A stretch of DNA of 35,885 bases from Thiotrichaceae bacterium (lineage in GTDB: Bacteria > Pseudomonadota > Gammaproteobacteria > Beggiatoales > Beggiatoaceae). The notes beneath the pieces were generated by a model, which saw only the letters and a program-made list of their open reading frames with translations, was not told where the DNA came from and searched no databases. A program made the translations under genes and the position numbers. Location of the stretch: positions 1 to 35,885 of the forward strand of contig JAOZSV010000021.1 in NCBI GenBank assembly GCA_029939505.1. Direction: 5' to 3'. Positions 6,065 to 33,479 of the stretch are shown piece by piece. Each line of letters begins with the position of its first letter. The first letter of the stretch is position 1.

Positions 6065-6105
6065 GTTCCCCCTTAAAATTCTATAACTACTATGGAGTGT
6101 CAAAT

Positions 6106-11544: not shown

Positions 11545-11564
11545 TTTTTCGTTAATAGTTCTAC

Positions 11565-11578
11565 AAATTTCTATAAAA
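11565..11578. repeat. 14-bp direct repeat, right of TnpB
   Basis: AAATTTCTATAAAA, identical to 10267-10280. It lies in the 74-base gap before the sigma-like gene. Confidence 0.6.
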
Positions 11579-11618
11579 TTGTGACCTAGTCAACATCAGA
11601 TGAAAAGGTAGGAACACC

Positions 11619-12584: not shown

Positions 12585-12631
12585 TATAGCGTTTCCCGAT
12601 CAACCTCAGTATAAGTTTTATTATTTTTTGG

Positions 12632-12667
12632 AGCTTTGGGCGTTACCAAATCACGAGTGCCAAAGCT
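12632..12667. repeat. Palindromic repeat between sigma-like and membrane protein genes
   Basis: AGCTTTGG (12632-12639) pairs with CCAAAGCT (12660-12667), inside a longer imperfect palindrome bounded by GGAG and CTCC. This is a dispersed-repeat type hairpin in the 126-base gap. It could reduce read-through or stabilise the upstream message. Confidence 0.55.
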
Positions 12668-12710
12668 TTGAACTCCATAATATTTTAATGACTGTATAGG
12701 AAAAACTATT

Positions 12711-13526: not shown

Positions 13527-13609
13527 AGGTGTATTATCCTTTTTCCAAAAAACTGTTGTATTATAATCTTGTCTATATCTTAATTTTCAATTTTTTTAAG
13601 GAAAACAAT

Positions 13610-16600
13610 ATGCACACACTCAAAACCATTACCTTGGCATTAATGCTAATTATTTTTTCGGTAGCAGGGCTACGAGCGGAGCCGGTTGCTATTTATGCTA
13701 CAAGTGCGAAGAATATTCGTATTGTACCATTAGTGCAAGGAGATATTCCCAACTTGAATGAAGGAGTTGATTTAGTAGCTTCGGCACCTTGTGAAGACGA
13801 TATTACTCAATCAGTTTTTATAGTTCCCTTAAACAGCAGTAGAGAATTTCTTACTATTTGGTGGAATAAAAATACTGACAAAACTTGTTATTCCAGATTT
13901 ATTTCCGATGGGAATGGTAGTTTTACTGAAAAGTACATGGGTGATTGGTTAGGTGGTGGAACATCTGTGTGGAGTAAGGGAACAAATGGTGATATTGGTA
14001 ATATTTGGTCACCGTTACCTTCTGCTGATCTTAATGGTGATAAAATAGATGATTTGGTGCTTATTCGTTGGCATAGATTAGGAACTCGTCCAAAATCTGT
14101 TGAATACAAGGTAGCACTTGGACAAAGTGACGGTAGTTTTGATTTTAGCGGTATTGCTACTACTTTTATAACTGGTGCTTGGACTGGCTCTGTTACGTTA
14201 GCCGATACAGACGGTGATAATCATGCTGATCTTGTTTATTACCGTTTTAGACATGGTGGCTCTCATTCCACTGATGTTTACTCATTAAAAGGACGAAGCA
14301 ATGGTACATTTGCCTCGGTAGCTGATAAAAAGTTACTTGTGAGTACTGGTGCTGGTCGAGGCAGTGCTAATCTTGCTGCAATTGGTGATTTTAATTCTGA
14401 TGGATACCCTGATTTATTTTTACCTCCTGATGATGATGTTTTAGATGAAGGGCAAGCTTATATTTCATTTGGTGATGAAAATAGTAAATTTACACCAATT
14501 TTAGAATCTATTGATTTTGTTTCAAGAAACGAAGGCAGAACAGGAGATACCTTCTCGGCAAGTACAGAAGCTTATGATGTCAATTTAGATGGTCATCTTG
14601 ATATTGTTGCTAATGCTAATCGATGGAATATCTTGACATCTAAAAAAGTTTATTTTGGTAATGGTAATGGGCAGTTTTCGATTACTGGAAAAAAATTATT
14701 TTCTGCTCCCAAAGGTACGCCTTACCCTCGATTAGCTTGGTTGTTTACATCTGAGCAGCGAGCGGAGGAAATTTCGCTTGAACAATTTGCTAATGAATTT
14801 AATACCCTCTTTCAGGCTAAAGACTGGAAAAAAATTGGACAATTATTTATCAATAACCCTAACACTGCCAAGCAGTTTCAACAGATGTTGGCTCGTGCTG
14901 GTGAGGGAACGGGGAAACAGGTGGAGCAGACACGTGCTTTAGCTGGGTTAGTGGCAAAGTTGCGCCAAGGTTTGTCTGGTAGTAAAAATCCTATGCTTGC
15001 CCGTTTACTAAAAGAAGGTAAAAAAGCCTATAGTATTGCTGAATATCGTACTGCTATAAGAAAGTGGGAACAAGGTTTAAATCTAGCACGTCAAACTAAA
15101 AGCCAATTGTATATTGGAGCATTTATTGGTAGTCTCGGCGTGGTGTACGATAATTTAGAACAATACCAAAAAGCCTTGATTTATCAACAGCAAGCCTTAG
15201 AAATTAACCGTAAAATTGACAATAAATATGGGGTTGGAAATAGCTTAAACAACATTGGCAACATATACGGAACATTAGATCAATACCAAAAAGCCTTAAA
15301 TTATTACCAGCAAGCTTTAGAAATCAACCGCAAAATCGGTTATAAGCGCGAGATTGGAATTAATTTAGCTAACATTGGCGTGGTGTACAAAATATTAGAA
15401 CAATACCAAAAAGCCTTGATTTATCAACAGCAAGCCTTAGAAATTATCCGTAAAATTGACGATAAATATGGGATGGGAAAGAGTTTAAGCAACATCGGTA
15501 ACGTGTATGGAAAGTTAAAGCAATACCAAAAAGACTTGAATTATCAACAGCAAGCCCTAAAAATCAGACAAAAAATTGGTGATAAGCACGGAGAAGCCTA
15601 TAGCCTTGCTAACATCGGCGTGGTCTATAAACATTTTGGCAAATATCAAAAAGCCAAAAAATTTTTTCAAAACAGTTTGGCTATGTTTGAAAAATTGGGT
15701 ATAGAAGATTCTTGGAAAGCACTACATAATTTAGCTTCCATTGAAGCTAAACTCAACCAACCCGAACTAGCCATTCAACACTACCAACAAGCTCTTGACA
15801 ATATAGAAATACTTCGTACAGGCATAACCACTAAAGAACTCAAAACTTCTTTTATGCGTAAAAAAAGATATATCTATGATGAGCTGATTGCTCTTCTACA
15901 ATCCCAGCACTCAAAACAACCAAATAAAGGCTACGACCGTAAAGCCATAGAAATCTTTGAACGTAAACAAGGCCGACTATTTTTAGAAGAAATGGGGCAA
16001 AGTGGAGTACGGCGGTTTGTGGGCTTAGATGATGAAATTATTACTGAAGAACAATCTCTTATGCTAAAGTGGCAAAAATTAGAAATACAAGCTTTTACAC
16101 CACAAGAATATACCGCTCTTGAACAAGCAGAAGAACAATTAAAAAAGCGTATCAAAGCAGAATATCCCAAGTACTATGCTCTGAAATACCCTCAGCCTGT
16201 TGATTTAGCAACGCTACAAAGCCAAGTATTACAGGAAAATGAGATGATGTTAGTTTATGGAGTAATGAAAAAAAATATCGTTTTATGGGTTATCGGTAAA
16301 CAACACTTTCAAATGTTCACCCTGCCAGTCGATGAAACCACTTTAAAACAAGAAGTCAAAAAATTACGGGCATACTTCAACCCCTTATTTAAAAATAAAT
16401 TTCTCAAGTATAGTCAAAATCTATATCAAACACTATTGCCGGAAGCAGTACGCCAACTGATAAAAGATGCAAAAACACTCTATATTATTCCAACTGGACC
16501 TTTATATGGACTGCCTTTTGGCTCGCTAGTAACATCCAACCCAAAGCAACCAATTCACTACCTTATCGAAGACTATCCAATAAGTTATCTATCCTCAGCA

Positions 16601-17380
16601 TCACTACTCAAAATCCTTCGCACCACAGAACGCAAAACCCAACCATCAGAACCGTTCTTAGCCTTTGCAGACCCAGAATATCCACCGTGTAATAGTACAA
16701 GCAACACCAAAACAGAAACTTTTACCGAACTACGCACCGAAGCCTACCTCAAATCAATCAAAGGTAACTGCTTCACCCGCCTCGCCGCCACCGCAGACGA
16801 AGTGCGTGAGATTGCAAACCTATTCAATGCCGATCACAGCAAAGCCCTCTACTTAGGAGCCAAAGCCAGTCGCAGCACCGTATTCGCCCTCAACAAAGAC
16901 GACAAACTAGACGATTATCGCTACATAATGTTCTCAGTACACGGCATAATCCCAAACAAAACCAACCAAATAGAACAACCCGCCTTAGTCCTATCAAACC
17001 CAACCACAGACGGCTACCTAACAATGGCAGACGCATTCGCCCTCAAACTCAACGCCGACTTCGTCAACCTATCTGCTTGCAACACCGGCTGCACCAAAAA
17101 AGACTGTAGCGAAAACGTGCGTGGCGAAGGCATCATGGGACTAACCCGCGCCTTCATGTATGCCGGAACCTCCCGTGTCGCCGTTACCTTATGGTCAGTA
17201 GATTTATATTCGTCTAAAGATTTGAATGTAGGACTATTTACCCATCTCAAAGCCAACAAAAAAATGGCCCACGCCCTACGAGAAATTAAGCTAAAAATGA
17301 TTCAAGGCAAAGCAAGTAATGAGCAATATGCACATCCCTACCACTGGGCAGGGTTTGTGGTGTATGGGGATGGACAATAA
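13610..17380 (+). CDS. Secreted FG-GAP/TPR/CHAT caspase-like protease
   Basis: 1256 residues. Start set at 13610 because AAGGAAAAC lies just upstream and the protein then begins with a clean signal peptide (MHTLKTITLALMLIIFSVAG, cleavage near LRA-EP). Residues about 130-370 hold four FG-GAP/VCBS-type calcium loops (LNGDKIDDLV, TDGDNHADLV, FNSDGYPDLF, VNLDGHLDIV). Residues about 500-720 hold at least five TPR repeats of 40 residues with almost identical units (EQYQKALIYQQQALEI). Residues about 870-1253 are a CHAT domain, a clan CD caspase-like fold. H1111 in SVHG and C1157 in LSACNTG form the expected dyad, so it should be active. CHAT proteases act in controlled proteolysis, cell death and gasdermin or Craspase-like pathways. 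A signal peptide on such a protein suggests action outside the cytoplasm. Confidence 0.88.
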   Translation: MHTLKTITLALMLIIFSVAGLRAEPVAIYATSAKNIRIVPLVQGDIPNLNEGVDLVASAPCEDDITQSVFIVPLNSSREFLTIWWNKNTDKTCYSRFISDGNGSFTEKYMGDWLGGGTSVWSKGTNGDIGNIWSPLPSADLNGDKIDDLVLIRWHRLGTRPKSVEYKVALGQSDGSFDFSGIATTFITGAWTGSVTLADTDGDNHADLVYYRFRHGGSHSTDVYSLKGRSNGTFASVADKKLLVSTGAGRGSANLAAIGDFNSDGYPDLFLPPDDDVLDEGQAYISFGDENSKFTPILESIDFVSRNEGRTGDTFSASTEAYDVNLDGHLDIVANANRWNILTSKKVYFGNGNGQFSITGKKLFSAPKGTPYPRLAWLFTSEQRAEEISLEQFANEFNTLFQAKDWKKIGQLFINNPNTAKQFQQMLARAGEGTGKQVEQTRALAGLVAKLRQGLSGSKNPMLARLLKEGKKAYSIAEYRTAIRKWEQGLNLARQTKSQLYIGAFIGSLGVVYDNLEQYQKALIYQQQALEINRKIDNKYGVGNSLNNIGNIYGTLDQYQKALNYYQQALEINRKIGYKREIGINLANIGVVYKILEQYQKALIYQQQALEIIRKIDDKYGMGKSLSNIGNVYGKLKQYQKDLNYQQQALKIRQKIGDKHGEAYSLANIGVVYKHFGKYQKAKKFFQNSLAMFEKLGIEDSWKALHNLASIEAKLNQPELAIQHYQQALDNIEILRTGITTKELKTSFMRKKRYIYDELIALLQSQHSKQPNKGYDRKAIEIFERKQGRLFLEEMGQSGVRRFVGLDDEIITEEQSLMLKWQKLEIQAFTPQEYTALEQAEEQLKKRIKAEYPKYYALKYPQPVDLATLQSQVLQENEMMLVYGVMKKNIVLWVIGKQHFQMFTLPVDETTLKQEVKKLRAYFNPLFKNKFLKYSQNLYQTLLPEAVRQLIKDAKTLYIIPTGPLYGLPFGSLVTSNPKQPIHYLIEDYPISYLSSASLLKILRTTERKTQPSEPFLAFADPEYPPCNSTSNTKTETFTELRTEAYLKSIKGNCFTRLAATADEVREIANLFNADHSKALYLGAKASRSTVFALNKDDKLDDYRYIMFSVHGIIPNKTNQIEQPALVLSNPTTDGYLTMADAFALKLNADFVNLSACNTGCTKKDCSENVRGEGIMGLTRAFMYAGTSRVAVTLWSVDLYSSKDLNVGLFTHLKANKKMAHALREIKLKMIQGKASNEQYAHPYHWAGFVVYGDGQ

Positions 17381-17678
17381 TTTAGACTTGACAGGTTTTT
17401 TATTATCACTAAAATAGGGGACAGACCACATTTATTATCGAAGCAACCTTGGCTTTCAAAAGGGAAATTTTCTTTGCCATTCTGAAAATAAATTAAAGGG
17501 AGAATAGGGGACAGACCCCATTTTCCCACCACATATTTAGTTATCCAAAATAAGGTCACTGTTAAATTACTCCAAAACATTTTGCTCCATTTTGGTATCA
17601 ATACTCAGGAGAAATTCTATCTTGAAGCAGAGTTTGAAGTCTCTCTTTGAATATTGGAAACGAGACAAAAAGTGTGAG
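17381..17678. repeat. Gene-free region with two AATAGGGGACAGACC repeats
   Basis: About 300 bases without a convincing gene. AATAGGGGACAGACC occurs at 17413-17427 and 17503-17517 in the same orientation, followed by CACATTT and CCATTTT. Repeats of this GGGGACAGACC type are often found with REP-associated (Y1) transposases; no transposase is present here, so these are probably relics. An AGACTTGACAGG-type fragment lies at 17383. Confidence 0.6.
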
Positions 17679-18850: not shown

Positions 18851-18894
18851 TGATGATTTCTCTTCATAAAAGAATTAAACGCTTTGAAAATCAA

Positions 18895-18937
18895 TTCGAG
18901 GTTCAAGTTTTTTTATCGAAAAAACTTGAACCTCGAA
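18895..18937. repeat. TTCGAGGTTCAAG-type palindromic element
   Basis: 43 bp: TTCGAGGTTCAAG, T7, ATCG, A6, CTTGAACCTCGAA. Its position within the type IIG relic matches residue 17 of the intact gene, where no such sequence is found. Confidence 0.9.
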
Positions 18938-18993
18938 TAGATATATACAAACAAAGCGACTACAACGAAACAAAAACGCGCAACGAGAATCCT

Positions 18994-19036
18994 TTCGAGG
19001 TTCAAGTTTTTTTATCGAAAAAACTTGAACCTCGAA
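18994..19036. repeat. TTCGAGGTTCAAG-type palindromic element
   Basis: 43 bp and identical to 18895-18937, only 56 bases downstream. It sits at the junction between the type IIG fragment and the cold-shock fragment. Confidence 0.9.
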
Positions 19037-19267: not shown

Positions 19268-22200
19268 ATGTCAATACGACTCAAAATCAAAAACATAATA
19301 AAACGCTTTGATAATCAAATAGATAGATATAAACAAAGCGATTACAACGAAACCCAAACGCGCATTGAGTTCATCAATCCGTTTTTCACCGCTTTAGGCT
19401 GGGATGTAGAAAACAAGCAAGGGCTTTCAATCACTCATTGCCCTGTTATCCACGAAGACACCTTAAAAATTGGCAGGGCAACCAAAATCCCCGATTATAG
19501 TTTTCGTGTCGGCGGGGTGCGAAAGTTTTTTGTCGAAGCGAAAAAACCGTCAATCAGCCTAAAAAATGATCCTGAACCTGCTTACCAATTGCGCCGCTAT
19601 GGCTGGAATGCCAAATTATCTCTGAGCATTGTCACCAACTTTGCCGAGTTTGCCGTTTATGATTGTCGCATCAAACCAGAATCTACGGATAAAGCATCCA
19701 CTGCTCGTGTTTGGTACTTACAGTTTACTGACTACCTTGAACATTGGGAAGAATTGGTGGAACGATTTTCCTTTGAAGCGGTTTGGCAGGGCAAGTTAGA
19801 TCAATATGCGACTGCCCAGACAAATACCAAAGGTGCTATAGAAGTTGATGCGGCATTTTTAGCCGAAATGGAAGAGTGGCGAAAAATATTAGCGCGTCAT
19901 ATTGCCTCAAACAATCAAGCATTAAGCCAACGCGAATTAAACAAAGTCGTTCAACAAACCATTGATCGCATTGTTTTTCTACGAATCTGTGAAGATCGGG
20001 GCATTGAAGATTATGGGCGTTTGTTGAGTTTGCAAAACGGCACCCAAATCTATCAACGTTTAATTCGACTTTTTCGTGAAGCCGATGAACGTTATGATTC
20101 GGGTTTATTTCATTTTAAAGCCGAAAAGGGGCGCGAAGAAGCAGATACTTTATCGCCTACCCTAACCATTGCCGATGAGATTCTCAAACCGATTATAAAA
20201 AGTCTCTATTATCCTGACAGCCCTTATGAGTTTTCAGTATTGGGGGCGGATATTTTAGGGCAAGTCTATGAACGATTTTTGGGTCAAGTCATTCATCTGA
20301 CTGACAAACATGAAGCCTTTATCGAAGAAAAGCCCGAAGTGAAAAAAGCGGGCGGTGTCTATTATACGCCTACTTATATTGTCGATTATATTGTCAAACA
20401 AACCATTGGTACCTTACTCAAAGATAAAAAAGTCGGATTACGCAGTCGCGTGAATCAATTAAAAATCCTTGATCCCGCTTGTGGCTCAGGTTCATTTTTA
20501 TTAGGGGCTTATCAATTTCTGCTCGACTGGCATTTAGAAGCGTATTTACAAAATCCCAACAAATGGGCAAAAGGCAAAAATCCGCGCCTTTATCAAGCGA
20601 TTGGCAAAACGTGGAAATTAACCGTTTCTGAGCGCAAGCGCATTTTATTAAACCATATTTACGGTGTCGATATCGATTCCCAAGCGGTGGAAGTCACTAA
20701 ACTCTCCTTATTACTCAAAGTCTTGGAAGACGAACAAAGCGTCATTTCTCAACTCTCTTTATTAAAAGAACGGGTGTTGCCTGATTTAGATAACAATATA
20801 AAATCCGGTAATTCATTGATTAGCAATGAATTTTATCAAGAACAACAATTAGGGCTTTTAGATGAGGAGACATTGTATCGAATTAATGCCTTTGACTGGG
20901 ATTCGGAATTTGGTGAGGTGATAAAAGCGGGGGGATTTGATGCGGTGATTGGAAATCCGCCTTATGTACGGCAAGAATTGCTAAGTGAATCAAAGGTTTA
21001 TTTTAAAGAACATTATAAAATCTATCATGGCGTTGCTGATTTATACGTCTATTTCATTGAAAAAGGAATCTCCTTACTCCGTGAAAATGGAATATTTGGC
21101 ATTATTGTCTCCAATAAATGGATGCGAGCCAATTATGCTCAACCATTGCGGCAATGGCTGAAACAGCAATGCTTAATCGAAATTATTGATTTTGGTGATT
21201 TGCCCGTTTTTCAACAAGCCACTTTAAGAGTTCAGAAAGCCAAACCTCCCACGACTTATACATGTATTTTAAGAGTTCAGAAAGCCAAACCTCAAGCCAC
21301 CTTTCAAGTGTCGCAAATCAAAACACTGGATTTTGATGATTTAAAAACTGAGGTGGCATCTCATGCTTATCGCATTGAACAATCCTCATTAAATCATGAA
21401 GGTTGGTCATTAGCTGATAAAAAGAGGCAAGCCCTTTTGGATAAATTGTACCAAAAGGCTATGCCCTTAAAAAAATATGTTGAGGGCAAAATTTTTTATG
21501 GCATCAAAACTGGGCTTAATGAAGCTTTTGTGATTGATGCCAAAACACGAGATAAATTAATGGCCAGCGATGCCAAAAGTGAGGAATTGATTAAGCCATT
21601 TTTATTGGGTAGGGATATTAAACGTTATCAAGCAATTTCAAATGAACGTTATTTAATTTTCACTCGTCGTGGTGTGGAGATTAAAAAATATCCAGCGATA
21701 AAACGGTACCTTCATCAGTTTAAAAAACAGCTGATGCCAAAGCCTAAAAATTGGAAAGAAGAGTGGCAAGGACGCAAACCAGGTAGTTATCAGTGGTATG
21801 AAATTCAGGATACGATTGCTTATTATCATGAGTTTGAAAAACCCAAAATTATCATTCCCGCTATTGTTCAAAAAGCCTCTTATGCCTTTGATAAGTTAGG
21901 CTTCTATTCTAATGACAAAACCTCAATTATCGCCTGCGATGATTTGTATTTATTGGGATTGTTAAATTCTCAAGTATTGGATTTTGTACTTCATTCAATC
22001 GCCTCAACCAAACGAGGCGGATATTTTGAATATAAACCGATGTATGTCCAAAAACTGCCTATTCGCTCAATTGACTTTGATAATCCAACCGACAAAGCCA
22101 CACATGATAAAATAGTACAACTGGTTGAAATCATGCTAACACTCAACCAAAAACTCGCCACTTCTCTTGATTCGCACAGCAGAACAGTCTTTAAACGTCA

Positions 22201-22294
22201 AATTGAAGCGACTGATCGGCAAATTGATCATTTGGTTTATCAATTGTATGGTTTGACGACTGAAGAAATTGGGATGGTGGAGAACAGCAATTAA
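19268..22294 (+). CDS. Type IIG (Eco57I-like) restriction-modification enzyme
   Basis: 1008 residues. It probably methylates adenine in DNA and cuts with an N-terminal nuclease in the same chain. Nuclease: D76 in KIPDYSFRV and E90-A-K92 in KFFVEAKKPS, a PD-(D/E)XK pattern (HSDR_N-like start RIEFINPFFTALGWDVE). Methyltransferase: GGVYYTP (362-368), motif I DPACGSGSF (402-410), motif IV NPPY (563-566). The C-terminal third should hold the target recognition domain. An internal 45-bp duplication repeats LRVQKAKP (about 653-660 and 668-675). It is the first gene of a tight cluster: the helicase gene starts 12 bases after its stop. Relics of the same gene lie on both sides of the cluster. Restriction specificity unknown. 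Confidence 0.85.
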   Translation: MSIRLKIKNIIKRFDNQIDRYKQSDYNETQTRIEFINPFFTALGWDVENKQGLSITHCPVIHEDTLKIGRATKIPDYSFRVGGVRKFFVEAKKPSISLKNDPEPAYQLRRYGWNAKLSLSIVTNFAEFAVYDCRIKPESTDKASTARVWYLQFTDYLEHWEELVERFSFEAVWQGKLDQYATAQTNTKGAIEVDAAFLAEMEEWRKILARHIASNNQALSQRELNKVVQQTIDRIVFLRICEDRGIEDYGRLLSLQNGTQIYQRLIRLFREADERYDSGLFHFKAEKGREEADTLSPTLTIADEILKPIIKSLYYPDSPYEFSVLGADILGQVYERFLGQVIHLTDKHEAFIEEKPEVKKAGGVYYTPTYIVDYIVKQTIGTLLKDKKVGLRSRVNQLKILDPACGSGSFLLGAYQFLLDWHLEAYLQNPNKWAKGKNPRLYQAIGKTWKLTVSERKRILLNHIYGVDIDSQAVEVTKLSLLLKVLEDEQSVISQLSLLKERVLPDLDNNIKSGNSLISNEFYQEQQLGLLDEETLYRINAFDWDSEFGEVIKAGGFDAVIGNPPYVRQELLSESKVYFKEHYKIYHGVADLYVYFIEKGISLLRENGIFGIIVSNKWMRANYAQPLRQWLKQQCLIEIIDFGDLPVFQQATLRVQKAKPPTTYTCILRVQKAKPQATFQVSQIKTLDFDDLKTEVASHAYRIEQSSLNHEGWSLADKKRQALLDKLYQKAMPLKKYVEGKIFYGIKTGLNEAFVIDAKTRDKLMASDAKSEELIKPFLLGRDIKRYQAISNERYLIFTRRGVEIKKYPAIKRYLHQFKKQLMPKPKNWKEEWQGRKPGSYQWYEIQDTIAYYHEFEKPKIIIPAIVQKASYAFDKLGFYSNDKTSIIACDDLYLLGLLNSQVLDFVLHSIASTKRGGYFEYKPMYVQKLPIRSIDFDNPTDKATHDKIVQLVEIMLTLNQKLATSLDSHSRTVFKRQIEATDRQIDHLVYQLYGLTTEEIGMVENSN
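21221..21311 (+). repeat. 45-bp in-frame tandem duplication inside the type IIG gene
   Basis: TTAAGAGTTCAGAAAGCC recurs with an offset of 45 bases (21224 and 21269) together with CAAACCTC. The 15 added codons keep the frame, in the region between the methyltransferase core and the expected recognition domain. Confidence 0.8.
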
Positions 22295-22306
22295 AAGGTC
22301 TTTTTT

Positions 22307-25300
22307 ATGACTCATGATGCGGAAAAAAACGATGAGCAAACCAAAAATATGGATGAATTTGGCAGTTTACAAGGGCGTACCTACGAGCTTGGCGGATTAG
22401 CTGGCGCAATAGGTGCGCTACGCCCTTTCAGGGCTTCAAAAGAATGCAAACAACAAATGGCTCGCATTATTTCTCGGCTCGGTGAGTTTAAGTTGAGCAA
22501 AATAATCAGTCAATTTGGCAAAGAATTTGATACAAAATCTCTTGATTTAAAATCACTCAAATCTGCGCCCTCTATTTTAAGTGCGAGATTATTTCAAGGT
22601 TATGTTCAAGGGTTTTGCGAAACTCAGCAGTTCATAAAATCTCTACCCGCTACCACAAAACCTCAATTAGTATGGGTTTATGCTAATCCCGCCCTTGGGC
22701 AAGAAACCAACGATGCCTTTGCTTTAGCACAACAAGAATTCGCCTTGATTGCCGATTTTTCTGATTTCAATTTCAGCACACTTAATGAAACGGGGAAATG
22801 CCCTTATGCTGATTTCTTATTGATTGTCAGAACATACTATAATAAGGCGTACCAATTTCATTTAATTTGTTACGAATTATCAACGCATAATGCGCCTACC
22901 ATAGATACTGAAATTAATTTATCTAATCCTGATGACATTTTTGAAAGTCTCAAACGTGGCAAAAATACGTTCACCAATCTGACTAAAACACGAGATTTTC
23001 GGATTGCCAGTGAAACGCTTGGCTTGGAAATCTCACAAGATTTGAAAAATTATTTTAGTGGCTTACTCACTCACGACAAAATCGCTAAAAAGCTGTTTCA
23101 AGGCGGGGGCTACGTTTACTCGCTTTATGAGACGATTAAAGATCGCATTATTTTAAATAAGCCCTTTGATCAATGGGAAAAGGCTAAGATTGAGTTCCAT
23201 GTTGTTGCGTTTACAGATCGCCATCGGCATTTTTTGCATCTGAAAGAAGATGAATCTGAACTTTTACAAAATATGGGGGTTATTTATCAACAAGGGATTA
23301 AAAGCGGCAGATACGATTTCCCTGAACAACAAAGCAAGCTGAGAGAAGAGCAAATACTGAACACTGAAAATGCTATCTTGCGAAATATACGACTCAATTT
23401 TCCGCAGGTACTCAAAGAGCCGCTTAGGGATTTGTATTACCGTGCCACAAATATTTTTGAGTGTCAACAACCCAACGATGATTACCTCAACTATTCTTTT
23501 CCAACGGAAAAAATAGAAGGTTACTGCCCCACTGCTACGCTGCCGACATTTGAACAATTACAATCATGGCTACCTATTGGGCTTGCCAAGCAACTTCAGG
23601 CGGCTGGTTTAAAATCAATGCAAGATGCTCATGCCGAACTGGTTAAGTCGGTTTGGAAAGACAATGATATTTTGGTGTTGTCAGGCACGCCGGGGATTGG
23701 TAAAACCACTGCTTTGCGTAACATTTTGTCTGACTATTCCTGTGGTTATTTACTGATTTATTTAAGTCCGCGAATCCAAGTGAATATGGATTTGATGGCA
23801 AAATTCGATCCGACGCTTGAGGGAAACAATCTTAAAGGAAAAGAGGAACTTATTTGCATCAATACCAATTCTACACTCATCAAAGCGGCTGACTCTCATC
23901 ATGGTAAAGCAGCACTGAGTTGCTGTAGCCAAAAAATACCTGATGATCCTAAGTTTTTGTTTTTAAGCCAAGAAGAGACAGAATCACTAGAAATCAAAGA
24001 GCTTAAAAAAAATCAATCTAACTATGGACGCACGGAGATAAGTGCTGCCACCGAGGTATCGCGGTATACTCATCACGGTGTCTTCAAGACGATAATGCAG
24101 GCAATTCACAGACTTAATGATCGGTACAGCTATAAACGCATCATTGCTTGTGTTTCAACGCAGTCAAATAGACAACGGAATCGGGAAACCACCACAGTTG
24201 GTGATCATTTGAGCAAAATGTTTGGCGATAGTCATAAAAAACTGGATATGACGTCTATTGAACAATTTGCCAATAACATCAAGGAAATTGTCTTTTTTGT
24301 TGATGAAGTCACTGGCGATGGTGCCGGGCGGAAAACCGTGCAGGAGATGATTCAGTTTCGCAAAGACGTGATGGATAAGTTTGATGATGTAGGAAAATCT
24401 TGTCCCCTGAAATTTCGTGTTCTGATTGCCGATGCTTCGCTCGTCAATGCGTCATCGGTTGAAAGTTATCTCAATGAAAAACAATCTCAACCTGAGCAGA
24501 TATTATTTACCGGCGATGCTGATTGTAAAGGACTGAGTATTGAAGACACCAAAATTTTGGGGCAGCCCGCGAAAATAATTAATGCGAATGTCTATCCCGC
24601 TGCAACGCTGACATTGAAATGGCAACCCGTTTTGGACTTTTGTGCGATTAAGAAAGAAGGAGATAAAGGCAAAGTAGTTGCCAAAGCCTATCGTGAACTC
24701 GAAAATTCCCTGCGCCTCAAACTGGCTCAAAAGTTGGTTGAGCGTTGGCAACAAAAGCCTAAAGAACAAACGATTGTTATTATTCAGAATAAAGAATCAA
24801 TCGATCAGCTAAGAAACGCTATTATTGAGTATGCCAAGGATAAAAAATGTGGTTATCTTGATATTATTTGTCTCCATGCACACTCTAAGCCTCAGATTAA
24901 GCGCGATATTGTCAGCCCTGCCACGGTTGAAGAAAAAAGCCAAAAACCACGAGAAGTGCCTATATCACAAAAAGGCGATCTGGCTGATATAATTCTAATG
25001 ACTTCATCAGGAACACGAGGCATCAGTTTTCCCAACGCCAGCAAAATTATCTGCCTTATTCCCACATTTTCCATAGAAAGTAATTTCATGGAATTTTTAC
25101 AAGGCATGTATAGGGGACGTGGTAGCGGCAAAGGCAATCAACTGAATCGAGAAATTGAACTGATTATCCCGCAAGTACTCGTCGCTCCCCCCGGTGGCAG
25201 CACGTCTGCTATTAAAGCGTCGCAAATATCCAATTTATTTGCAACACTGATGCTGATGCGAATGAGCATTTTGACGCGCCTATTTGGTGCCTCTAAATTA

Positions 25301-26224
25301 TTTGGTAAATCCGTATCCTGCATACCCCTTTCGGGCAGCTTAGTTGAAGGTGCCGCGCAATCAACAATGGATAATATTTCGAGTGCGATTGAAGCTTTAG
25401 AAAGAGCGCATAAACAGAATCCGAGTGATACTAACCTTCGCTATATTAAAGAAAATATACGTGACGTTTTTAAAAACGAAAATGTCGTATTGCACCATAA
25501 CGCTAAATATGCGACGACACTTGCCTCAACGACGTATAGAAATCGCTTATTGAAACAATTTACTCAAGACGCTAATAGAGGGCTTCATGTTATTGCGACA
25601 GAAAATTACCTCCCGGATGGATGTTATACAGTGGGTGAGTTGATATTGCAAAAGCTAGATAGTCTCGAAGGCGACATGAGAGAAAAGAATAGGCATTTAG
25701 TGGAAACTCATATAGAAGAAAAGCTCAAAGTCATCGAAGCCATCTGTGTTAAACTGAAAACTTTTATTAAGGAGAAGAACACAATCAAGGCTGTGCGCGA
25801 TCCGGCTAATACACTTTACCCCATCCTAAATGTGATTGCTGGTGACGAGCCAGACAGTGATACTGAAAGCGAACTGGGTGGCACAGTACTCAATCGCTGG
25901 CTGGCTTTTCCTATCAGTGCCCTACATATTGAGAATTTCTGGAAAAACCAAGTTGAGCCACTTCGCTTTAAAGAGGACATGAAAGAAATGATGAAAGCGT
26001 ACTTTCATGCCTACTTATGTCAGCCAAATTATACGCTCCCGATACATAGCCACTATGATGACAATGCGTTGCCTTGGCTATTGTTACGTGGACCAGAAAT
26101 AGAGCAACGACTCAACGCACAATTTCAAACGCGCTATTTTGTCAGTTCCAAGTCTTTATCATTACTAAATATAATGTTATTAGCTCATACTGCAAAGGAG
26201 GAGAAAAATAATGGCTCAAATTGA
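22307..26224 (+). CDS. Large SF2-type helicase of a putative defence operon
   Basis: 1305 residues. The helicase core occupies about 450-950: Walker A GTPGIGKTTA (460-469), Walker B IVFFVDEVTGDG (661-672, DEVT rather than DEAD/DEAH), a motif III-like LIADASL (706-712), motif V MTSSGTRGISFPNA (898-911) and motif VI QGMYRGRGSG (932-941). Residues 1-400 have no family I recognise; YADFLLIV...FHLICYELS (167-192) could be a decayed nuclease fold. The C-terminal 350 residues are helical and unassigned. It starts 12 bases after the type IIG gene (AAAAGG upstream) and overlaps the next gene by 14 bases, so translation is probably coupled. By analogy with helicase-containing defence systems it may remodel or unwind foreign DNA. 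Confidence 0.75.
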   Translation: MTHDAEKNDEQTKNMDEFGSLQGRTYELGGLAGAIGALRPFRASKECKQQMARIISRLGEFKLSKIISQFGKEFDTKSLDLKSLKSAPSILSARLFQGYVQGFCETQQFIKSLPATTKPQLVWVYANPALGQETNDAFALAQQEFALIADFSDFNFSTLNETGKCPYADFLLIVRTYYNKAYQFHLICYELSTHNAPTIDTEINLSNPDDIFESLKRGKNTFTNLTKTRDFRIASETLGLEISQDLKNYFSGLLTHDKIAKKLFQGGGYVYSLYETIKDRIILNKPFDQWEKAKIEFHVVAFTDRHRHFLHLKEDESELLQNMGVIYQQGIKSGRYDFPEQQSKLREEQILNTENAILRNIRLNFPQVLKEPLRDLYYRATNIFECQQPNDDYLNYSFPTEKIEGYCPTATLPTFEQLQSWLPIGLAKQLQAAGLKSMQDAHAELVKSVWKDNDILVLSGTPGIGKTTALRNILSDYSCGYLLIYLSPRIQVNMDLMAKFDPTLEGNNLKGKEELICINTNSTLIKAADSHHGKAALSCCSQKIPDDPKFLFLSQEETESLEIKELKKNQSNYGRTEISAATEVSRYTHHGVFKTIMQAIHRLNDRYSYKRIIACVSTQSNRQRNRETTTVGDHLSKMFGDSHKKLDMTSIEQFANNIKEIVFFVDEVTGDGAGRKTVQEMIQFRKDVMDKFDDVGKSCPLKFRVLIADASLVNASSVESYLNEKQSQPEQILFTGDADCKGLSIEDTKILGQPAKIINANVYPAATLTLKWQPVLDFCAIKKEGDKGKVVAKAYRELENSLRLKLAQKLVERWQQKPKEQTIVIIQNKESIDQLRNAIIEYAKDKKCGYLDIICLHAHSKPQIKRDIVSPATVEEKSQKPREVPISQKGDLADIILMTSSGTRGISFPNASKIICLIPTFSIESNFMEFLQGMYRGRGSGKGNQLNREIELIIPQVLVAPPGGSTSAIKASQISNLFATLMLMRMSILTRLFGASKLFGKSVSCIPLSGSLVEGAAQSTMDNISSAIEALERAHKQNPSDTNLRYIKENIRDVFKNENVVLHHNAKYATTLASTTYRNRLLKQFTQDANRGLHVIATENYLPDGCYTVGELILQKLDSLEGDMREKNRHLVETHIEEKLKVIEAICVKLKTFIKEKNTIKAVRDPANTLYPILNVIAGDEPDSDTESELGGTVLNRWLAFPISALHIENFWKNQVEPLRFKEDMKEMMKAYFHAYLCQPNYTLPIHSHYDDNALPWLLLRGPEIEQRLNAQFQTRYFVSSKSLSLLNIMLLAHTAKEEKNNGSN

Positions 26225-29200
26225 GGAAAGCCGCATAAATCACGGCAAAATTGATCTAAGTCATCTGTTCAAGCCGATTATTGAGTGTCTTCAAAAAGAC
26301 GAGAATAGTCTGCTGAAAGAACATGAAGGCAAAATCTATGTGATGACAGACAAGATTATTGGGTGCATTCTCGAAAATCAGGCTTGTGTAAACAGTATGC
26401 GTAAGGAAGGGCATCTTTTTTCTGATCTCAAATGGGCAACTGCCATTGCCACATTGCACAAAGATAAAGTTGCCCAAAAGCAAATGAAACAGGCTGTTCA
26501 TTTGGAAGAGGTGATTTACGAGACTCTGCAATCCCTCTTATATGAAAAAGAGGTGGACTTTTTTGGGCAAAGTGCGTCATCCTATTTTGACGCATTAAGT
26601 GCCTTGGCAGGTAAAAAAAATGAGATAGGCAGACAGCAATCTGCCGCTTTTCCTGATGCCCAATTATTGAAAGACTACCCCGGTACTAGAGCTATCTTAC
26701 GTGTTCCTCGGCATACGATTCAAATGAAAGGTGAACTCTCAGAGGCATTTGTAAAGGCGGTCAAACAAGTCGTGGAAAAGAGATTATCTAGGGATGAATA
26801 CCCTGAAGATGAGATTGATTCAATCATTCAGACTATCGAAAAAGGCTTAGATGATAATACTAGCCCGTTAAGTCCAGCCTTAAAGGTTTTTGACGAAAAT
26901 GCGTATGGCAGAATACGGAGAACTTATGCCTGTAGTGTCTTAGAAAAAATGGTACCGGCACTTGATAATAATTCCCCAGCTATTTCCTATATTCGTAGAG
27001 TGAGTGATTTTAACGAACTTGTCCAAGGTACATTAGGGCTGTCAGCTAAAGATTTGGTACTTGAATTTCCTAATTCAGATGGGAAAGGCACGATGAATTT
27101 CGATCTGATGAACGAATTTTCCCGTGCTGACGCTTTAAAGAAATTGCCTTTTTGGTTTAGGTTCGATGAATTGCTTTTTGAAAGTACGAAGACAGAGAAC
27201 ATCACAACCACCTTGGGTCAACATTTCAAAATGAATGGTCAAGTGAGCGAAGGGTTTGATTCGGTGTTTGAATTTCGCGTCGATAAACTCACCACGATGG
27301 CAAATCTGCTTAAAGAAGCTTGTACGAAAGGACAAGGGTTCCCCAATGAATATGATATTCGCAAGGCTTTACGGATTGCTGTTCTTTATTATGTCGTTTT
27401 TTATCACATTCCTAATCCACAAAGCGAGCCTAAAGATGCCCTAGCCAATTACAATGAATTTCGTGAAAAATTAGCCAACTTAGTCGCCAATAAGGTTGGC
27501 TTGGAAGTCATTTTAGCGCGTATTGCAAAAGGGCTTAGTGATCATAGGATTATTCGTAACAACACTGCTATTCGGCAAGCTTTTAAAAAGTTATTACAAA
27601 GCCGTCAACCAGAGAAGTTTTTACCTAAACAAAAACTCTACCTCACCATCTCCAATGAGATTCTCAACAATACTGCTGGTATAGTGGGTGGAAAACCAAT
27701 TGTGTCACAAGACTATGATACGAGCTACCTAAAATTCCTGAAGGTAACGCGCTTTTCAGATGCTGATCCTAGCGCACTTTTAAAGGAAGAAATCCGCTTT
27801 ACCGAGTCACTGCGTTATTTAACACTTCCTGCAAACAATCAACCCCGAAAAAGAGAAATGAATCGTGATATTGATCGCAAAGTGCTTGGTGTGCTTTTCA
27901 TGCCCAAAGATAACGAAATGCGTTATTTCGCGTTGCCATTTAAAACATTCACCAATCTGATTATTTCTTATGATAGAAACCAGATAAACGGCATAAACCC
28001 ACAATCTGGCAAAGATGATTATTTGACAGGGCTTGCCCAACTCACTTACGTGTTGTTGGTGTATGGGGTACTCAAGGCGGTTGAACGTCTTGAAGCTGAA
28101 TACCAACAAAGTCTTCTTGAGACGACTGATGATAACAGTATAAAACATGCGAACCGAACAATGATGTTGATGTTGTCGTTATTTCCTGATGAAGAAAAAC
28201 ACTTTACCCATGATGCACACAAGGCAATTGAACATATCATTAGACAGTACATGCCGACTAAAAGTCAGGGATTTAGGCTCCTTTACTCTAAAAACTGGGA
28301 TGAGTTTGTCAAACAGAGTAGCTCGGAACAAATAAAAGAACAAGCGAATAACCACATTCAACAGGAGATGAAAAAGGATTATCGTGCCGCCAACATCATA
28401 GGAGGCTTGTCTTCCGGCTTAGACTCACTCTGGCATTTGCCCGATGAACCCAGTCTGAAAAAAGTCGCCATGATTGTCGTAACATCACGCGCTTGTGATA
28501 AAACCCGTCAAGATTCTGAGATAGCTGATCGTAAAGTCATGTATGGCAACATCCATCGCTTTGAATATGAAACTCAAGACGAAAATGGCTTGAAGCACTT
28601 TTACCGACATCAACCCGTCGAAGCCTTCTGCGATGACATGAATGTGGCCGATAGTTTCAAAAACCCTTCGGTGCTTTTTCGTACCATCAGGCAATTATAT
28701 AAGGAAGGTTGTCGTAATGTGATCGTTGTGACAAAGGTACCTTTTACTCGTCGCATACGCATGACGACAGATGAGAATACCACTTATATCAACCCCAAAA
28801 TTCTTCATGAATTGTATAAAAAAATGCCTGAACTTCGGATTTATCCGTTATTCACTCAAAAGTCTTATGGTGTGCGTCTGCTGCCAAAACAGCCTAGACA
28901 ACCCATGTTCATTCCTTATAATCCAAGTTATGACGAGTCTATTCCAGATGAACCGAATAATAGCACCTTATTTCGTGCCGCCTCGGTGCTGACTAATCAT
29001 GTCATTGAAAAAAAATGGGAAGTGGGTGATAAATTGCATAGTGGTATCACAGATTACCTGTTTCGGTGGTATCCTGAAACAGCAACCATTCAAAGTCAGG
29101 CGATGGCGGCATTGACGAACCACGGTAAAGAACAAACCGGTTTACACGAAATCCTCAGATTTTTACATGCCAATGCTTTTGAGCAAGTTCTTGGGAGTAA

Positions 29201-29420
29201 GAATGCACTAGAAGCCAAGCTAGATGCGCTTGAAACAATCATTGGAAACAGACACGAGAATATTGGGCATCAGGCCGATTCGTTAAAGTTTCCTAAACCC
29301 AAGAAAGGCGAAGGTCCTAACAACAAAACTCATGACTTTTCAATTAACATGATTGCTTTGCTCAAGCATCTTGAAAATCAATCGAATGAGTACCGCAAAA
29401 AATTTGTGCATCAAAAATAG
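26211..29420 (+). CDS. Large protein of unknown family, partner of the helicase
   Basis: 1069 residues; no known family recognised. It begins inside the helicase gene with a very strong Shine-Dalgarno (AAAGGAGGAG, 8 bases before ATG). Residues 1-500 look alpha-helical. Residues about 545-600 form a strand-rich part (RKVLGVLFMPKDNEMRYFAL). Residues 750-892 alternate strand and helix: KKVAMIVVTSR, then FRTIRQLYKEGCRNVIVVTK, then PELRIYPLFTQKSYGVRLLP, with conserved-looking R, D, K and Y. This could be a Rossmann-like or RNase H/PIWI-like fold, but I cannot show catalytic residues. The C-terminal tail is basic. Its tight coupling to the helicase suggests the two proteins form a complex. No transmembrane segment or signal peptide. 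Confidence 0.65.
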   Translation: MAQIEESRINHGKIDLSHLFKPIIECLQKDENSLLKEHEGKIYVMTDKIIGCILENQACVNSMRKEGHLFSDLKWATAIATLHKDKVAQKQMKQAVHLEEVIYETLQSLLYEKEVDFFGQSASSYFDALSALAGKKNEIGRQQSAAFPDAQLLKDYPGTRAILRVPRHTIQMKGELSEAFVKAVKQVVEKRLSRDEYPEDEIDSIIQTIEKGLDDNTSPLSPALKVFDENAYGRIRRTYACSVLEKMVPALDNNSPAISYIRRVSDFNELVQGTLGLSAKDLVLEFPNSDGKGTMNFDLMNEFSRADALKKLPFWFRFDELLFESTKTENITTTLGQHFKMNGQVSEGFDSVFEFRVDKLTTMANLLKEACTKGQGFPNEYDIRKALRIAVLYYVVFYHIPNPQSEPKDALANYNEFREKLANLVANKVGLEVILARIAKGLSDHRIIRNNTAIRQAFKKLLQSRQPEKFLPKQKLYLTISNEILNNTAGIVGGKPIVSQDYDTSYLKFLKVTRFSDADPSALLKEEIRFTESLRYLTLPANNQPRKREMNRDIDRKVLGVLFMPKDNEMRYFALPFKTFTNLIISYDRNQINGINPQSGKDDYLTGLAQLTYVLLVYGVLKAVERLEAEYQQSLLETTDDNSIKHANRTMMLMLSLFPDEEKHFTHDAHKAIEHIIRQYMPTKSQGFRLLYSKNWDEFVKQSSSEQIKEQANNHIQQEMKKDYRAANIIGGLSSGLDSLWHLPDEPSLKKVAMIVVTSRACDKTRQDSEIADRKVMYGNIHRFEYETQDENGLKHFYRHQPVEAFCDDMNVADSFKNPSVLFRTIRQLYKEGCRNVIVVTKVPFTRRIRMTTDENTTYINPKILHELYKKMPELRIYPLFTQKSYGVRLLPKQPRQPMFIPYNPSYDESIPDEPNNSTLFRAASVLTNHVIEKKWEVGDKLHSGITDYLFRWYPETATIQSQAMAALTNHGKEQTGLHEILRFLHANAFEQVLGSKNALEAKLDALETIIGNRHENIGHQADSLKFPKPKKGEGPNNKTHDFSINMIALLKHLENQSNEYRKKFVHQK

Positions 29421-29481: not shown

Positions 29482-29593
29482 CTAGTACACTGTCAAGCGG
29501 AAATTTCCAGTTTATTGAGAAATCCGATTTTTTGAAAAAATCGGATTTCTTTGACTTTTGAGTGGTACGGAAACTTCCGCTCTCCTGCACTAG
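29482..29593. mobile_element. MITE-like inverted repeat with palindromic core
   Basis: CTAGTACACTGTCAAGCGGA (from 29482) and the complement of the right end (CTAGTGCAGGAGAGCGGAAG, read from 29593) match imperfectly over about 25 bases. The centre is the palindrome 29518-29550. No coding capacity. It lies in the 225-base gap after the operon. Confidence 0.55.
29518..29550. repeat. T/A-tract palindrome, AGAAATCCGA arm type
   Basis: AGAAATCCGATTTTTT, G, then the complement; 33 bp. Same type as 205-237 and 32087-32119. It may terminate transcription of the operon 98 bases upstream. Confidence 0.8.
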
Positions 29594-29644
29594 TATCAAA
29601 AAATTCCTAAAAAATTTATGCCTACCCAACAAGTCAAAACCTTA

Positions 29645-30622
29645 GTATAACGCTTTGAAAATCAAATAGATACATATAAACAAAGCGACTACAACGAAAC
29701 CAAAACGCGCATTGAGTTCATCAATCCGTTTTTTACCGCTTTAGGCTGGGATGTAGAAAACAAGCAAGGGCTTTCCATCACTCATTGCCCTGTTATCCAC
29801 GAAGACACCTTAAAAATTGGCAGGGCAACCAAAATCCCCGATTATAGTTTTCGTGTCGGCGGGGTGCGAAAGTTTTTTGTCGAAGCGAAAAAACCGTCAA
29901 TCAGCCTAAAAAATGATCCTGAACCCGCTTATCAATTGCGCCGCTATGGCTGGAATGCCAAACTCTCTCTCAGCATTGTTACCAACTTTGCTGAATTTGC
30001 CGTTTATGATTGTCGGAAAAAACCGGGAAAAACCGATTCGCCAGCAATAGGCGCGAATTAAACAAAGTCGTTCAACAAACCATTGATCGCACTGTCTTTA
30101 TTACTCAAAGTCTTGGAAGATGAACAAAGCGTTATCTCGCAACTCTCTTTATTAACTGATGTGACGCACTATGTTTCCAAGATGTTTAAGAAATCTTTGA
30201 AAAAAATCGAATCTAGGCTAAAGTTTTTTCTTCAAAAAAACTTTAGCCTAGATTTCTAAACGGCGAAACGATGTTTAAGAAATCCTTTGAAAAAATCGGA
30301 TTTCTAAGCTCGAATAGAATCGCTTTGCGTCACATCAGTTATTAAAAGAACGGGTGTTACCCGATTTAGATAACCATATAAAATATTGTAACTCATTGAT
30401 TAGTAATGATTTTTATAAATTCAACCATTAGGGCTTTTAGATGAGGAGACATTGTATCGGATTAATGCATTTGACTGGGAGGCGGAATTTGCAGACGCGA
30501 TGAAAGCGGGGGGGCTTTGATGCGGTGATTGGAAATCCGCCTTATGGGGATTTTTTGTCACCCGTGGTTTATCAATTGTATGGTTTGACGAAAGGGGAGT
30601 TTGAGATTGTGGAGAACAGCAA
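29645..30622 (+). pseudogene. Decayed copy of the type IIG restriction-modification gene
   Basis: 29645-30025 matches the 5' end of the gene at 19268 almost base for base (RYGWNAKLSLSIVTNFAEFA and the EAKKP nuclease motif are intact), but has no start codon. It then jumps across deletions: a fragment equal to about 19930-19975 is joined to one equal to about 20705-20790, which is interrupted by an insertion (30155-30339). Fragments around NPPY and the last 60 bases of the gene follow, with stop codons. The copy keeps gene order from start to end, so it is a decayed whole gene rather than a random fragment. 30623-30745 holds no gene. Confidence 0.85.
30155..30339. mobile_element. 185-bp MITE-like insertion in the type IIG relic
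   Basis: 14-bp terminal inverted repeats ACTGATGTGACGCA (30155-30168) and TGCGTCACATCAGT (30326-30339), bracketed by a 5-bp direct repeat TATTA (30150-30154, 30340-30344). The intact gene has the empty site CTCTCTTTATTAAAAGAACG at about 20756, so both the insertion and the duplication are directly shown. The interior holds a nested palindrome, CTAGGCTAAAG to CTTTAGCCTAG (30213-30251), and an AAGAAATCC-type palindrome (30278-30307). No open reading frame. Confidence 0.85.
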
Positions 30623-31947: not shown

Positions 31948-32311
31948 AATCCTAAAAAAAACCGGCGAGGTTTAGCGAAAACGCAGATTCGCCCCTACAG
32001 CCACAGAATATGCGGGGTTTTGTAGGGGCATCTCTGTTAAATTTGAAGCCATTTTACCGTTTTTTTTTCACCCCTATGCGAAAACGAGAAATCCGATTTT
32101 TTTCAAAAATCGGATTTCTTTACCCTCAAGAATACCTCATTTTTCAAACGGAACACGAAAACGAGCGATTTTTTTCAAAAATCGGATTTCTTTACCCTCA
32201 CTGGTGTTGACTCGTATGGGTTTAGCTTCTCGTACCTCTATCCACCCGACGACTCAGCTTATTGATTATTATTAATTTAAAGAGTGCCTAATCATTGAGA
32301 TATTAATTTTT
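31948..32311. repeat. Gene-free repeat-rich region
   Basis: No gene seen; an open frame at 32010-32210 is made of repeats. Contents: inverted GCCCCTACA/TGTAGGGGC (31991-31999, 32021-32029); the palindrome AGAAATCCGATTTTT at 32087-32119; and a second damaged copy at 32165-32189. The two copies lie in matching context (CGAAAACGAG before, TTTACCCTCA after), so they arose by a local duplication of about 70 bp. Confidence 0.7.
32087..32119. repeat. T/A-tract palindrome, AGAAATCCGA arm type
   Basis: AGAAATCCGATTTTT with the complement after a short loop, 33 bp. The next copy (32165-32189) has lost part of its left arm (GCGATTTTT instead of GAAATCCGATTTTT), which shows how these palindromes decay. 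Confidence 0.8.
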
Positions 32312-33436: not shown

Positions 33437-33479
33437 TTCGAGGCTAAAGTTTTTTCTTTAAAAAAACTTTAGCCTCGAA
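33437..33479. repeat. TTCGAGGCTAAAG-type palindromic element in the RHS gene
   Basis: 43 bp: TTCGAGGCTAAAG, T-tract, loop, A-tract, CTTTAGCCTCGAA. It introduces a stop (TAA) after LEYVRG; the RHS sequence resumes with TDHFLTKMTDAAGQ immediately after it. Confidence 0.9.

What the first reader, a model, noticed from the sequence alone, without database searches (positions are those of the whole stretch)
19268..29420. Tight three-gene cluster: type IIG enzyme, SF2 helicase, unknown 1069-residue protein
The genes are spaced 12 bp and -14 bp, read the same way and total 10 kb. The first has clear nuclease and methylase motifs, the second clear Walker and motif VI sequences, and the third matches no family I know. 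Large helicase plus large unknown partner plus modification enzyme is the logic of BREX, DISARM and similar defence systems, but the hallmark PglZ, BrxC, BrxL or DUF1998 proteins are absent. It may be an undescribed anti-phage system. The coupling is seen in sequence; the defence role is inferred.
Basis: partly seen in the sequence, partly recalled or inferred. Interest (0 to 1): 0.78.

Follow-up and report, generated by a model that had tools for sequence, protein, structure and literature searches.

The report
Undescribed helicase plus Argonaute-like defence pair
Two neighbouring bacterial genes, a DNA/RNA-unwinding motor and a protein that looks by predicted shape like a gene-silencing Argonaute with lost scissors, travel together through several bacterial phyla and probably form a guide-directed defence system against invading DNA that current catalogues do not name; the restriction enzyme next door is only a neighbour.

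Summary
The three genes, their coordinates and their 12 bp and -14 bp spacing are confirmed. The conserved unit is the last two genes only. The "unknown" 1069-aa protein has no sequence hit in Pfam, NCBIfam, PADLOC or PDB, but its AlphaFold2 model (pLDDT 80, pTM 0.80) matches Argonaute/PIWI structures in all 50 best rows (Z 9.2-10.8), with both catalytic aspartates apparently replaced. Its partner is a true SF2 helicase carrying an N-terminal domain whose topology and invariant residues (E27, D169, D/E190, K258, K262, Q265xxxY269) suggest a RecB-like PD-(D/E)XK nuclease with a displaced lysine. The pair is adjacent and co-oriented in 35 loci from Gammaproteobacteria, Desulfobacterota, Cyanobacteria and Ktedonobacteria, with near-identical divergence (Mantel r 0.986), often among known defence genes and on conjugative plasmids. 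The type IIG gene is autonomous and is swapped for other genes elsewhere. The closest known systems are ApsAB, DdmDE and the pPIWI-RE triad; all differ in architecture. Best reading: a new variant of helicase-Argonaute interference. Guide use, nuclease activity and target (plasmid or phage) are inferred.

The parts
19268..22294 (+). Type IIG restriction-modification enzyme (neighbour, not part of the conserved core)
   Evidence: PDLC03604 731 bits; common and tandemly repeated in genomes without the pair
22307..26224 (+). Core gene 1: SF2 helicase (1305 aa) with N-terminal nuclease-like domain
22307..23299 (+). Predicted RecB-like PD-(D/E)XK domain (residues 1-331): E27, D169, D/E190-x-S192, D257, K258, K262, Q265xxxY269
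   Evidence: secondary structure (alpha-beta-beta-beta-alpha-beta); conservation over 34 sequences; inference, no database match
23684..23710 (+). Walker A / helicase motif I GTPGIGKTT (residues 460-468)
   Evidence: G, PGIGKTT invariant
24302..24319 (+). Walker B / helicase motif II DEVTGD (residues 666-671)
25100..25123 (+). Helicase motif VI QGMYRGRG (residues 932-939)
26196..26203 (+). Strong Shine-Dalgarno AGGAGGAG for core gene 2, inside the end of core gene 1
26211..29420 (+). Core gene 2: divergent Argonaute-like protein (1069 aa), apparently catalytically inactive
27918..28445 (+). MID-like domain (about residues 570-745); invariant Q686-G687
28446..29366 (+). PIWI/RNase H-like domain (about residues 746-1052); S/T-S/T-R replaces Asp at end of beta1, (K/H/Q)-A/V-P at end of beta4
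29631..30622 (+). Decayed second copy of the type IIG gene (pieces of 86-96% DNA identity, frameshifts and stops)
18874..18996 (+). Stub of the type IIG N-terminus upstream of the intact gene

Best explanation
Genes 2 and 3 are a two-gene helicase-Argonaute interference module. The Argonaute-like protein binds a short nucleic-acid guide and recognises complementary invader DNA, but cannot cut because its PIWI catalytic aspartates are gone. It recruits or loads the helicase, which unwinds or travels along the target. An N-terminal RecB-like nuclease domain of the helicase then nicks or degrades the DNA. Shown here: conserved operon, SF2 motor with all motifs, Argonaute fold of the partner (predicted model), co-divergence, frequent defence-gene neighbours. 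Inferred: loss of catalysis, nuclease activity of the N-terminal domain, guide use, and the target (plasmid and/or phage DNA). The type IIG enzyme is a separate R-M gene sitting beside the module.
For: Fold: AF2 model pLDDT 80.3, pTM 0.80 from 31 sequences. Foldseek top hit is Pyrococcus Argonaute, prob 0.96. VIA-align: all 50 best rows are Argonaute/PIWI or Med13, Z 9.2-10.8, about 300-400 residues aligned, including short pAgos over residues 534-1052. Motor: Foldseek E down to 5e-10 and VIA Z up to 16.6 to SF2 helicases, motifs invariant. Pairing: 35 loci with both genes, all same strand, many overlapping. In 39 genomes of the host family, all 9 with the Ago-like gene also have the helicase, and 9 of 10 with a real helicase match have the Ago-like gene. 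Mantel r 0.986, 0 of 2000 permutations. The Acinetobacter partner is homologous (hhalign 99.8%). Context: IetS, HEC-01A, HEC-06, NsnA/B, PD-T4-2, GmrSD, type IV REase and MADS3 relatives nearby; conjugative plasmids. Precedent: ApsAB, DdmDE (PMC11096173; PMC12904381).
Against: No experiment. Foldseek E-values for the Argonaute match are weak (4.7e-3) and profile-profile comparison with long pAgos gives no significant score. The MID 5'-phosphate motif Y-x3-K...K is not conserved; only Q-G is. The N-terminal nuclease assignment rests on topology and conserved residues; the canonical lysine position is Ser192, and profile search found nothing. Defence-gene enrichment in the flanks was not measured against a control.
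Confidence: 0.62

Rival explanations
1. The pair is a divergent member of the described ApsAB/DdmDE family itself (helicase-nuclease plus Argonaute-like antiplasmid systems), not a separate lineage.
For: Same two-component logic; ApsB homologues carry a conserved Q-G in the MID motif, as here (PMC11096173). ApsAB-like systems were reported in some cyanobacteria and beta-proteobacteria.
Against: ApsA has its nuclease at the C terminus, Walker A at 218 and motif VI at 1140; here Walker A is at 460, motif VI at 932, no conserved D...DxK lies in the C-terminal part, and the nuclease-like domain is N-terminal. ApsB was reported to lack a PIWI RNase H fold; here it is present in the model.
Confidence: 0.2
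2. A three-gene system in which the type IIG enzyme marks self DNA and the helicase and large protein attack unmodified DNA (BREX/DISARM-like logic).
For: Tight spacing in the window; an intact 69% identical IIG gene next to a decayed pair in G019 and a IIG fragment beside the pair in G008.
Against: IIG relatives of 57-71% identity occur, some in tandem, in genomes without the pair; among the other pair loci only two in close relatives and one distant Dolichospermum gene show a IIG match; no PglZ, BrxC, BrxL or DUF1998.
Confidence: 0.06
3. A housekeeping or mobile-element function (repair, replication restart, plasmid maintenance or competition between elements) rather than host defence.
For: Found on several conjugative plasmids; helicase-Argonaute combinations could serve inter-plasmid conflict.
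Against: Patchy occurrence, decayed copies (L012, L055), neighbours rich in defence families, not a fixed chromosomal gene in any clade seen.
Confidence: 0.1
4. A member of the pPIWI-RE triad (REase, DinG helicase, PIWI-RE).
For: Same functional parts: nuclease, SF2 helicase, PIWI.
Against: No PF13032 match, whereas the true pPIWI-RE of the same genome (contig C78) is found at 6.7e-27; hhalign 0.2% for the PIWI proteins and P-loop only for the helicases; gene order and number differ.
Confidence: 0.02

Closest known systems
ApsAB antiplasmid system (E. coli ST38; PMC11096173)
   Same: Two-gene operon of an SF2 helicase-nuclease and an Argonaute-like protein; conserved Q-G in the MID region; defence islands; scattered over phyla.
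   Different: ApsA nuclease is C-terminal (D1420, DVK1435) and the helicase core is spread over about 900 residues; ApsB has the Y-x3-K...QG...K motif and no PIWI RNase H fold. Here the nuclease-like domain is N-terminal, Walker A to motif VI is about 470 residues, a PIWI fold is predicted, Y-x3-K is not conserved.
DdmDE (Vibrio; described in PMC11096173 and PMC12904381)
   Same: Helicase-nuclease plus a pAgo-type partner that guides it to plasmid DNA.
   Different: No sequence from DdmDE could be obtained for comparison; no DdmD/DdmE hit appeared in the PADLOC scans, though presence of those models in that library was not verified.
pPIWI-RE triad (PMC3702460)
   Same: PIWI protein, SF2 helicase and restriction-endonuclease-fold domain encoded together.
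   Different: Three genes in fixed order with a DinG helicase; the host genome carries a real one on another contig and it shows no profile similarity to this pair.
Catalytically inactive long-B prokaryotic Argonautes with co-encoded effectors (PMC10620215)
   Same: Long Argonaute-like protein without catalytic residues, paired with an effector.
   Different: No significant profile match to long pAgos; effector here is a large helicase.
Type IIG restriction enzymes (PADLOC PDLC03604)
   Same: Gene 1 is a full-length member.
   Different: Not part of the conserved pair.

Membership tests
SF2 helicase | Motifs I, II, III, V, VI in a two-RecA-domain core | tested here: met
   Invariant GxPGIGKTT, DEVxGD, DAS, MTSSxxRG.SF, QxxYRGRG in 34 sequences; VIA Z up to 16.6, rmsd 3.7, 334 residues to Prp2
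PD-(D/E)XK nuclease superfamily (HEL N-terminus) | alpha-beta-beta-beta-alpha-beta core with E, D, D/E and K active-site residues | tested here: inconclusive
   Topology in model and invariant E27, D169, D/E190, K258/K262, Q265xxxY269 fit; the usual Lys position is Ser192 and no profile hit was found; the domain was not folded or searched alone
Argonaute/PIWI fold superfamily (UNK) | MID plus PIWI RNase H-like domains | tested here: met
   All 50 best VIA rows Argonaute/PIWI/Med13, Z 9.2-10.8, rmsd 4.5-6.1; Foldseek 1u04 prob 0.96 but E 4.7e-3
Argonaute/PIWI fold superfamily (UNK) | Pfam Piwi (PF02171) sequence profile | tested here: not met
   No match in the window genome at E <= 0.001; not required for structural membership
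Catalytically active Argonaute | DEDX tetrad in the PIWI domain | tested here: not met
   No Asp at the ends of predicted beta1 (S/T758, S/T759) or beta4 (A841, K/H/Q842) in 35 sequences; positions inferred from predicted strands, not from a superposition
pPIWI-RE | PF13032 profile | tested here: not met
   Only contig C78 matches in the host genome; hhalign probability 0.2%
pPIWI-RE | REase - DinG helicase - PIWI gene triad | tested here: not met
   Two-gene unit in 35 loci
ApsAB | ApsB MID motif Y[X]3K[X]nQG[X]nK | tested here: not met
   Q686-G687 invariant but Y-x3-K and the distal K are not conserved
ApsAB | C-terminal PD-(D/E)XK in the helicase protein | tested here: not met
   Only E1126 is a conserved charged residue after residue 1010
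ApsAB | Sequence relationship to ApsA/ApsB | not tested
   Sequences not obtainable; a motif-VI pattern search gave only chance hits
DdmDE | Structural relationship to DdmD/DdmE | tested here: inconclusive
   Not among displayed fold-search rows; lists are truncated
BREX | PglZ, BrxC, BrxL with PglX | tested here: not met
   No such proteins beside the pair in the window; gene 1 scores far below the curated BREX PglX cut-offs
DISARM | DrmA helicase, DrmB (DUF1998), DrmC | tested here: not met
   No DrmA/DrmB/DrmC match for genes 2 and 3
Helicase-Argonaute defence | Guide-dependent elimination of plasmid or phage DNA | not testable with these tools
   Needs experiment

The most novel reading that the evidence does not exclude
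A third, independent lineage of helicase-Argonaute interference systems, spread over at least four phyla and missing from Pfam, NCBIfam and PADLOC, in which a catalytically dead, highly divergent Argonaute directs a helicase whose N-terminal RecB-like nuclease uses a lysine displaced onto helix B.
Probability: 0.5. Interest if true: 0.82.

Novelty: new variant of a known kind. Interest (0 to 1): 0.74.

Why it matters
It would add a widespread, unannotated branch to the few known systems that couple an Argonaute-like protein to a helicase. It would show that this solution against invading DNA arose or diversified more than once, with the nuclease at opposite ends of the helicase. It gives a concrete, testable two-gene unit, with intact copies on well-studied cyanobacterial plasmids (Trichormus variabilis ATCC 29413, Tolypothrix PCC 7712), and new divergent Argonautes to examine as programmable DNA binders.

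Tried and rejected
Three-gene unit: rejected. pPIWI-RE membership: rejected. A conserved third gene: the genes found between or beside the pair differ from locus to locus, e.g. what reads as a C5-methyltransferase plus a second gene in L088, a short repeat ORF in L043, and unrelated ORFs in L019, L010 and L089; flank clustering found no cluster in more than 5 loci. Close-relative search of genome contigs with the single Ago-like sequence found nothing because of divergence; the helicase profile worked. Viral contigs gave only P-loop matches; phage records none. Sequence search of PDB with the profiles of the Ago-like protein and of the N-terminal domain: nothing meaningful. Profile comparison with long pAgos: no significant score, although the one aligned stretch covers the MID Q region. 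Attempt to obtain ApsA by its motif VI: only out-of-context chance hits. PADLOC family name DdmE not accepted. Co-occurrence test in cyanobacterial genomes could not be centred. A Pfam scan of the intervening genes failed on a wrong coordinate and was not repeated. DdmDE paper not held. DdmD/DdmE did not appear among the displayed fold-search rows, which proves nothing.
Full report
Observation. The three ORFs lie at 19268-22294, 22307-26224 and 26211-29420 on the + strand, with 12 bp and -14 bp spacing. The third start codon has an AGGAGGAG Shine-Dalgarno inside the end of the second gene. Gene 1 is a full-length type IIG enzyme. Gene 2 shows only weak Pfam P-loop and Helicase_C matches and gene 3 none; gene 3 has none in PADLOC or NCBIfam either, nor do its 30 aligned relatives at a meaningful level in Pfam and PADLOC.

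What the conserved unit is. A single-sequence search of 191 related genomes found gene 3 in six. A Nostoc plasmid (pNPM2) carries a distant gene 3 next to a gene 2 homologue, in the opposite order. A helicase profile then found 41 loci in Desulfobacterota (e.g. Desulfonema magnum), Cyanobacteria, Ktedonobacteria (Thermogemmatispora, Ktedonobacter, Dictyobacter) and the Beggiatoa-like Gammaproteobacteria, and plasmid records added Trichormus, Tolypothrix, Acinetobacter and Cupriavidus. In 35 non-redundant loci both genes are present, always on the same strand, often overlapping or within 100 bp; the lone-gene cases are contig ends, a gene whose partner lies on a separate short contig, or decayed copies. 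Order is helicase-first in Desulfobacterota and some Beggiatoa relatives, Ago-first elsewhere. Pairwise distances of the two proteins correlate at r = 0.986 over 30 loci (0 of 2000 permutations). Among 39 genomes of the host family, the Ago-like gene occurs in nine, all of which have the helicase; only one further genome has a real helicase match without it, on a 4.4-kb contig. The highly divergent Acinetobacter partner is still homologous (hhalign 99.8%, 973 columns).

What the type IIG gene is. Genes 57-71% identical to it occur in relatives without the pair, and there are tandem arrays (G034:C530, in a genome whose pair genes lie on other contigs, and G029:C297, in a genome with none). Around other pair loci a similar gene appears only in L012 (68%), as a fragment in L088, and as a distant relative in L047. 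In the window itself a decayed second copy (29631-30622) and a stub (18874-18996) flank the cluster. In L088 the two core genes are separated by what reads as a C5-cytosine methyltransferase and a second gene. I read the type IIG gene as one of several exchangeable neighbours.

Gene 3 is Argonaute-like. AlphaFold2 with 31 sequences gives pLDDT 80.3 and pTM 0.80. Foldseek's best PDB hit is Pyrococcus furiosus Argonaute (prob 0.96, E 4.7e-3). VIA-align's 50 best entries are all Argonautes, PIWI proteins or the PIWI-related Med13, Z 9.2-10.8, rmsd 4.5-6.1, about 300-400 residues, including MID-PIWI-only short Argonautes aligned to residues 534-1052. The tool's stated background for unmatched models is a best Z of 7-8 and 4-5 at rank 50. 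The invariant Q686-G687 sits where the MID glutamine is expected, and the weak hhalign alignment to long pAgos falls on that stretch. At the ends of predicted strands beta1 and beta4, where active Argonautes carry two of their catalytic aspartates (established knowledge), the family has S/T-S/T-R and (K/H/Q)-A/V-P instead. I therefore infer a catalytically dead PIWI domain; the mapping rests on predicted strands, not on coordinates.

Gene 2 is an SF2 helicase with an N-terminal nuclease-like domain. Motifs I, Ia, II, III, V and VI are invariant or nearly so over 34 sequences. The model matches SF2 helicases over residues 435-1013, VIA Z up to 16.6. The N-terminal 330 residues are predicted as helix (81-112), strand (120-126), strand (170-178), strand (181-191), helix (258-277), strand (294-302), the order of the PD-(D/E)XK core. 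The conserved residues fall where that fold needs them: E27 on an N-terminal helix, D169 at the start of the second strand, D/E190 at the end of the third, and D257, K258, K262 and Q265xxxY269 on the following helix, the last resembling the QxxxY motif of RecB-like nucleases (family motifs from general knowledge). Ser192 replaces the usual lysine; K258 or K262 could take its role. This is an inference that profile searches did not confirm.

Context. Among 89 proteins encoded in the flanks of the pair in many genomes, PADLOC at 1e-10 finds IetS, HEC-01A, HEC-06, NsnA/NsnB, PD-T4-2, type IV REase, MADS3 and others, and Pfam finds GmrSD restriction domains in four. No control set was scanned, so enrichment is not measured. 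Several copies are on conjugative plasmids. The host genome also has a canonical pPIWI-RE triad on another contig, which shows no profile similarity to the pair.

Comparison with known systems. ApsAB couples a helicase-nuclease with an Argonaute-like protein and eliminates plasmids; Walker A, ATPase and MID-motif mutants lose activity, a nuclease mutant loses it partly, and no effect was seen on eight phages (PMC11096173). The authors link it to DdmDE, which is described as DNA-guided (PMC12904381). The present pair has the same logic but a different layout: nuclease-like domain at the other end of the helicase, a compact motor, a predicted PIWI fold, and no Y-x3-K motif. I could not obtain ApsAB or DdmDE sequences, so common descent within that family is open. 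I file the pair as a new variant of helicase-Argonaute interference, not as a member of ApsAB, DdmDE or pPIWI-RE.

Verdict. Defence function, guide use, nuclease activity and target remain to be shown by experiment.

Noticed in passing
window 29631-30622 and 18874-18996: Decayed second copy of the type IIG gene directly downstream of the pair and a small stub upstream; the pair lies between IIG copies.
   Followed up: partly
G000 contig C78, about 10080-17493 (L068:6081-13494, - strand): A canonical pPIWI-RE triad (REase-like 379 aa, DinG-like helicase 1111 aa, pPIWI-RE 975 aa) in the same genome, with a P-loop ATPase-like 483-aa ORF behind it.
   Followed up: partly
G034:C530 and G029:C297: Tandem arrays of three to four related type IIG genes.
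   Followed up: no
window 6058-6930 and 7361-8188: Two KilA-N domain proteins side by side; a related gene also lies near the pair in L014.
   Followed up: no
window 13523-17380: A 1285-aa protein combining FG-GAP repeats, TPR repeats and a C-terminal CHAT protease domain.
   Followed up: no
window 290-5779 (- strand): 1829-aa protein with BACON and PMP repeats and a pilin-like match at its C-terminal end.
   Followed up: no
window about 204-240, 29515-29550, 30210-30254, 32086-32121, 33438-33478: Short palindrome-like repeats of 33-45 bp matching each other in both orientations, resembling REP or MITE elements.
   Followed up: no
L088:4082-6154: In genome G008 a C5-cytosine-methyltransferase-like gene and a second ORF sit between the Argonaute-like gene and the helicase.
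   Followed up: partly
window 10282-11544: IS605-type OrfB/TnpB-like gene upstream of the cluster.
   Followed up: no
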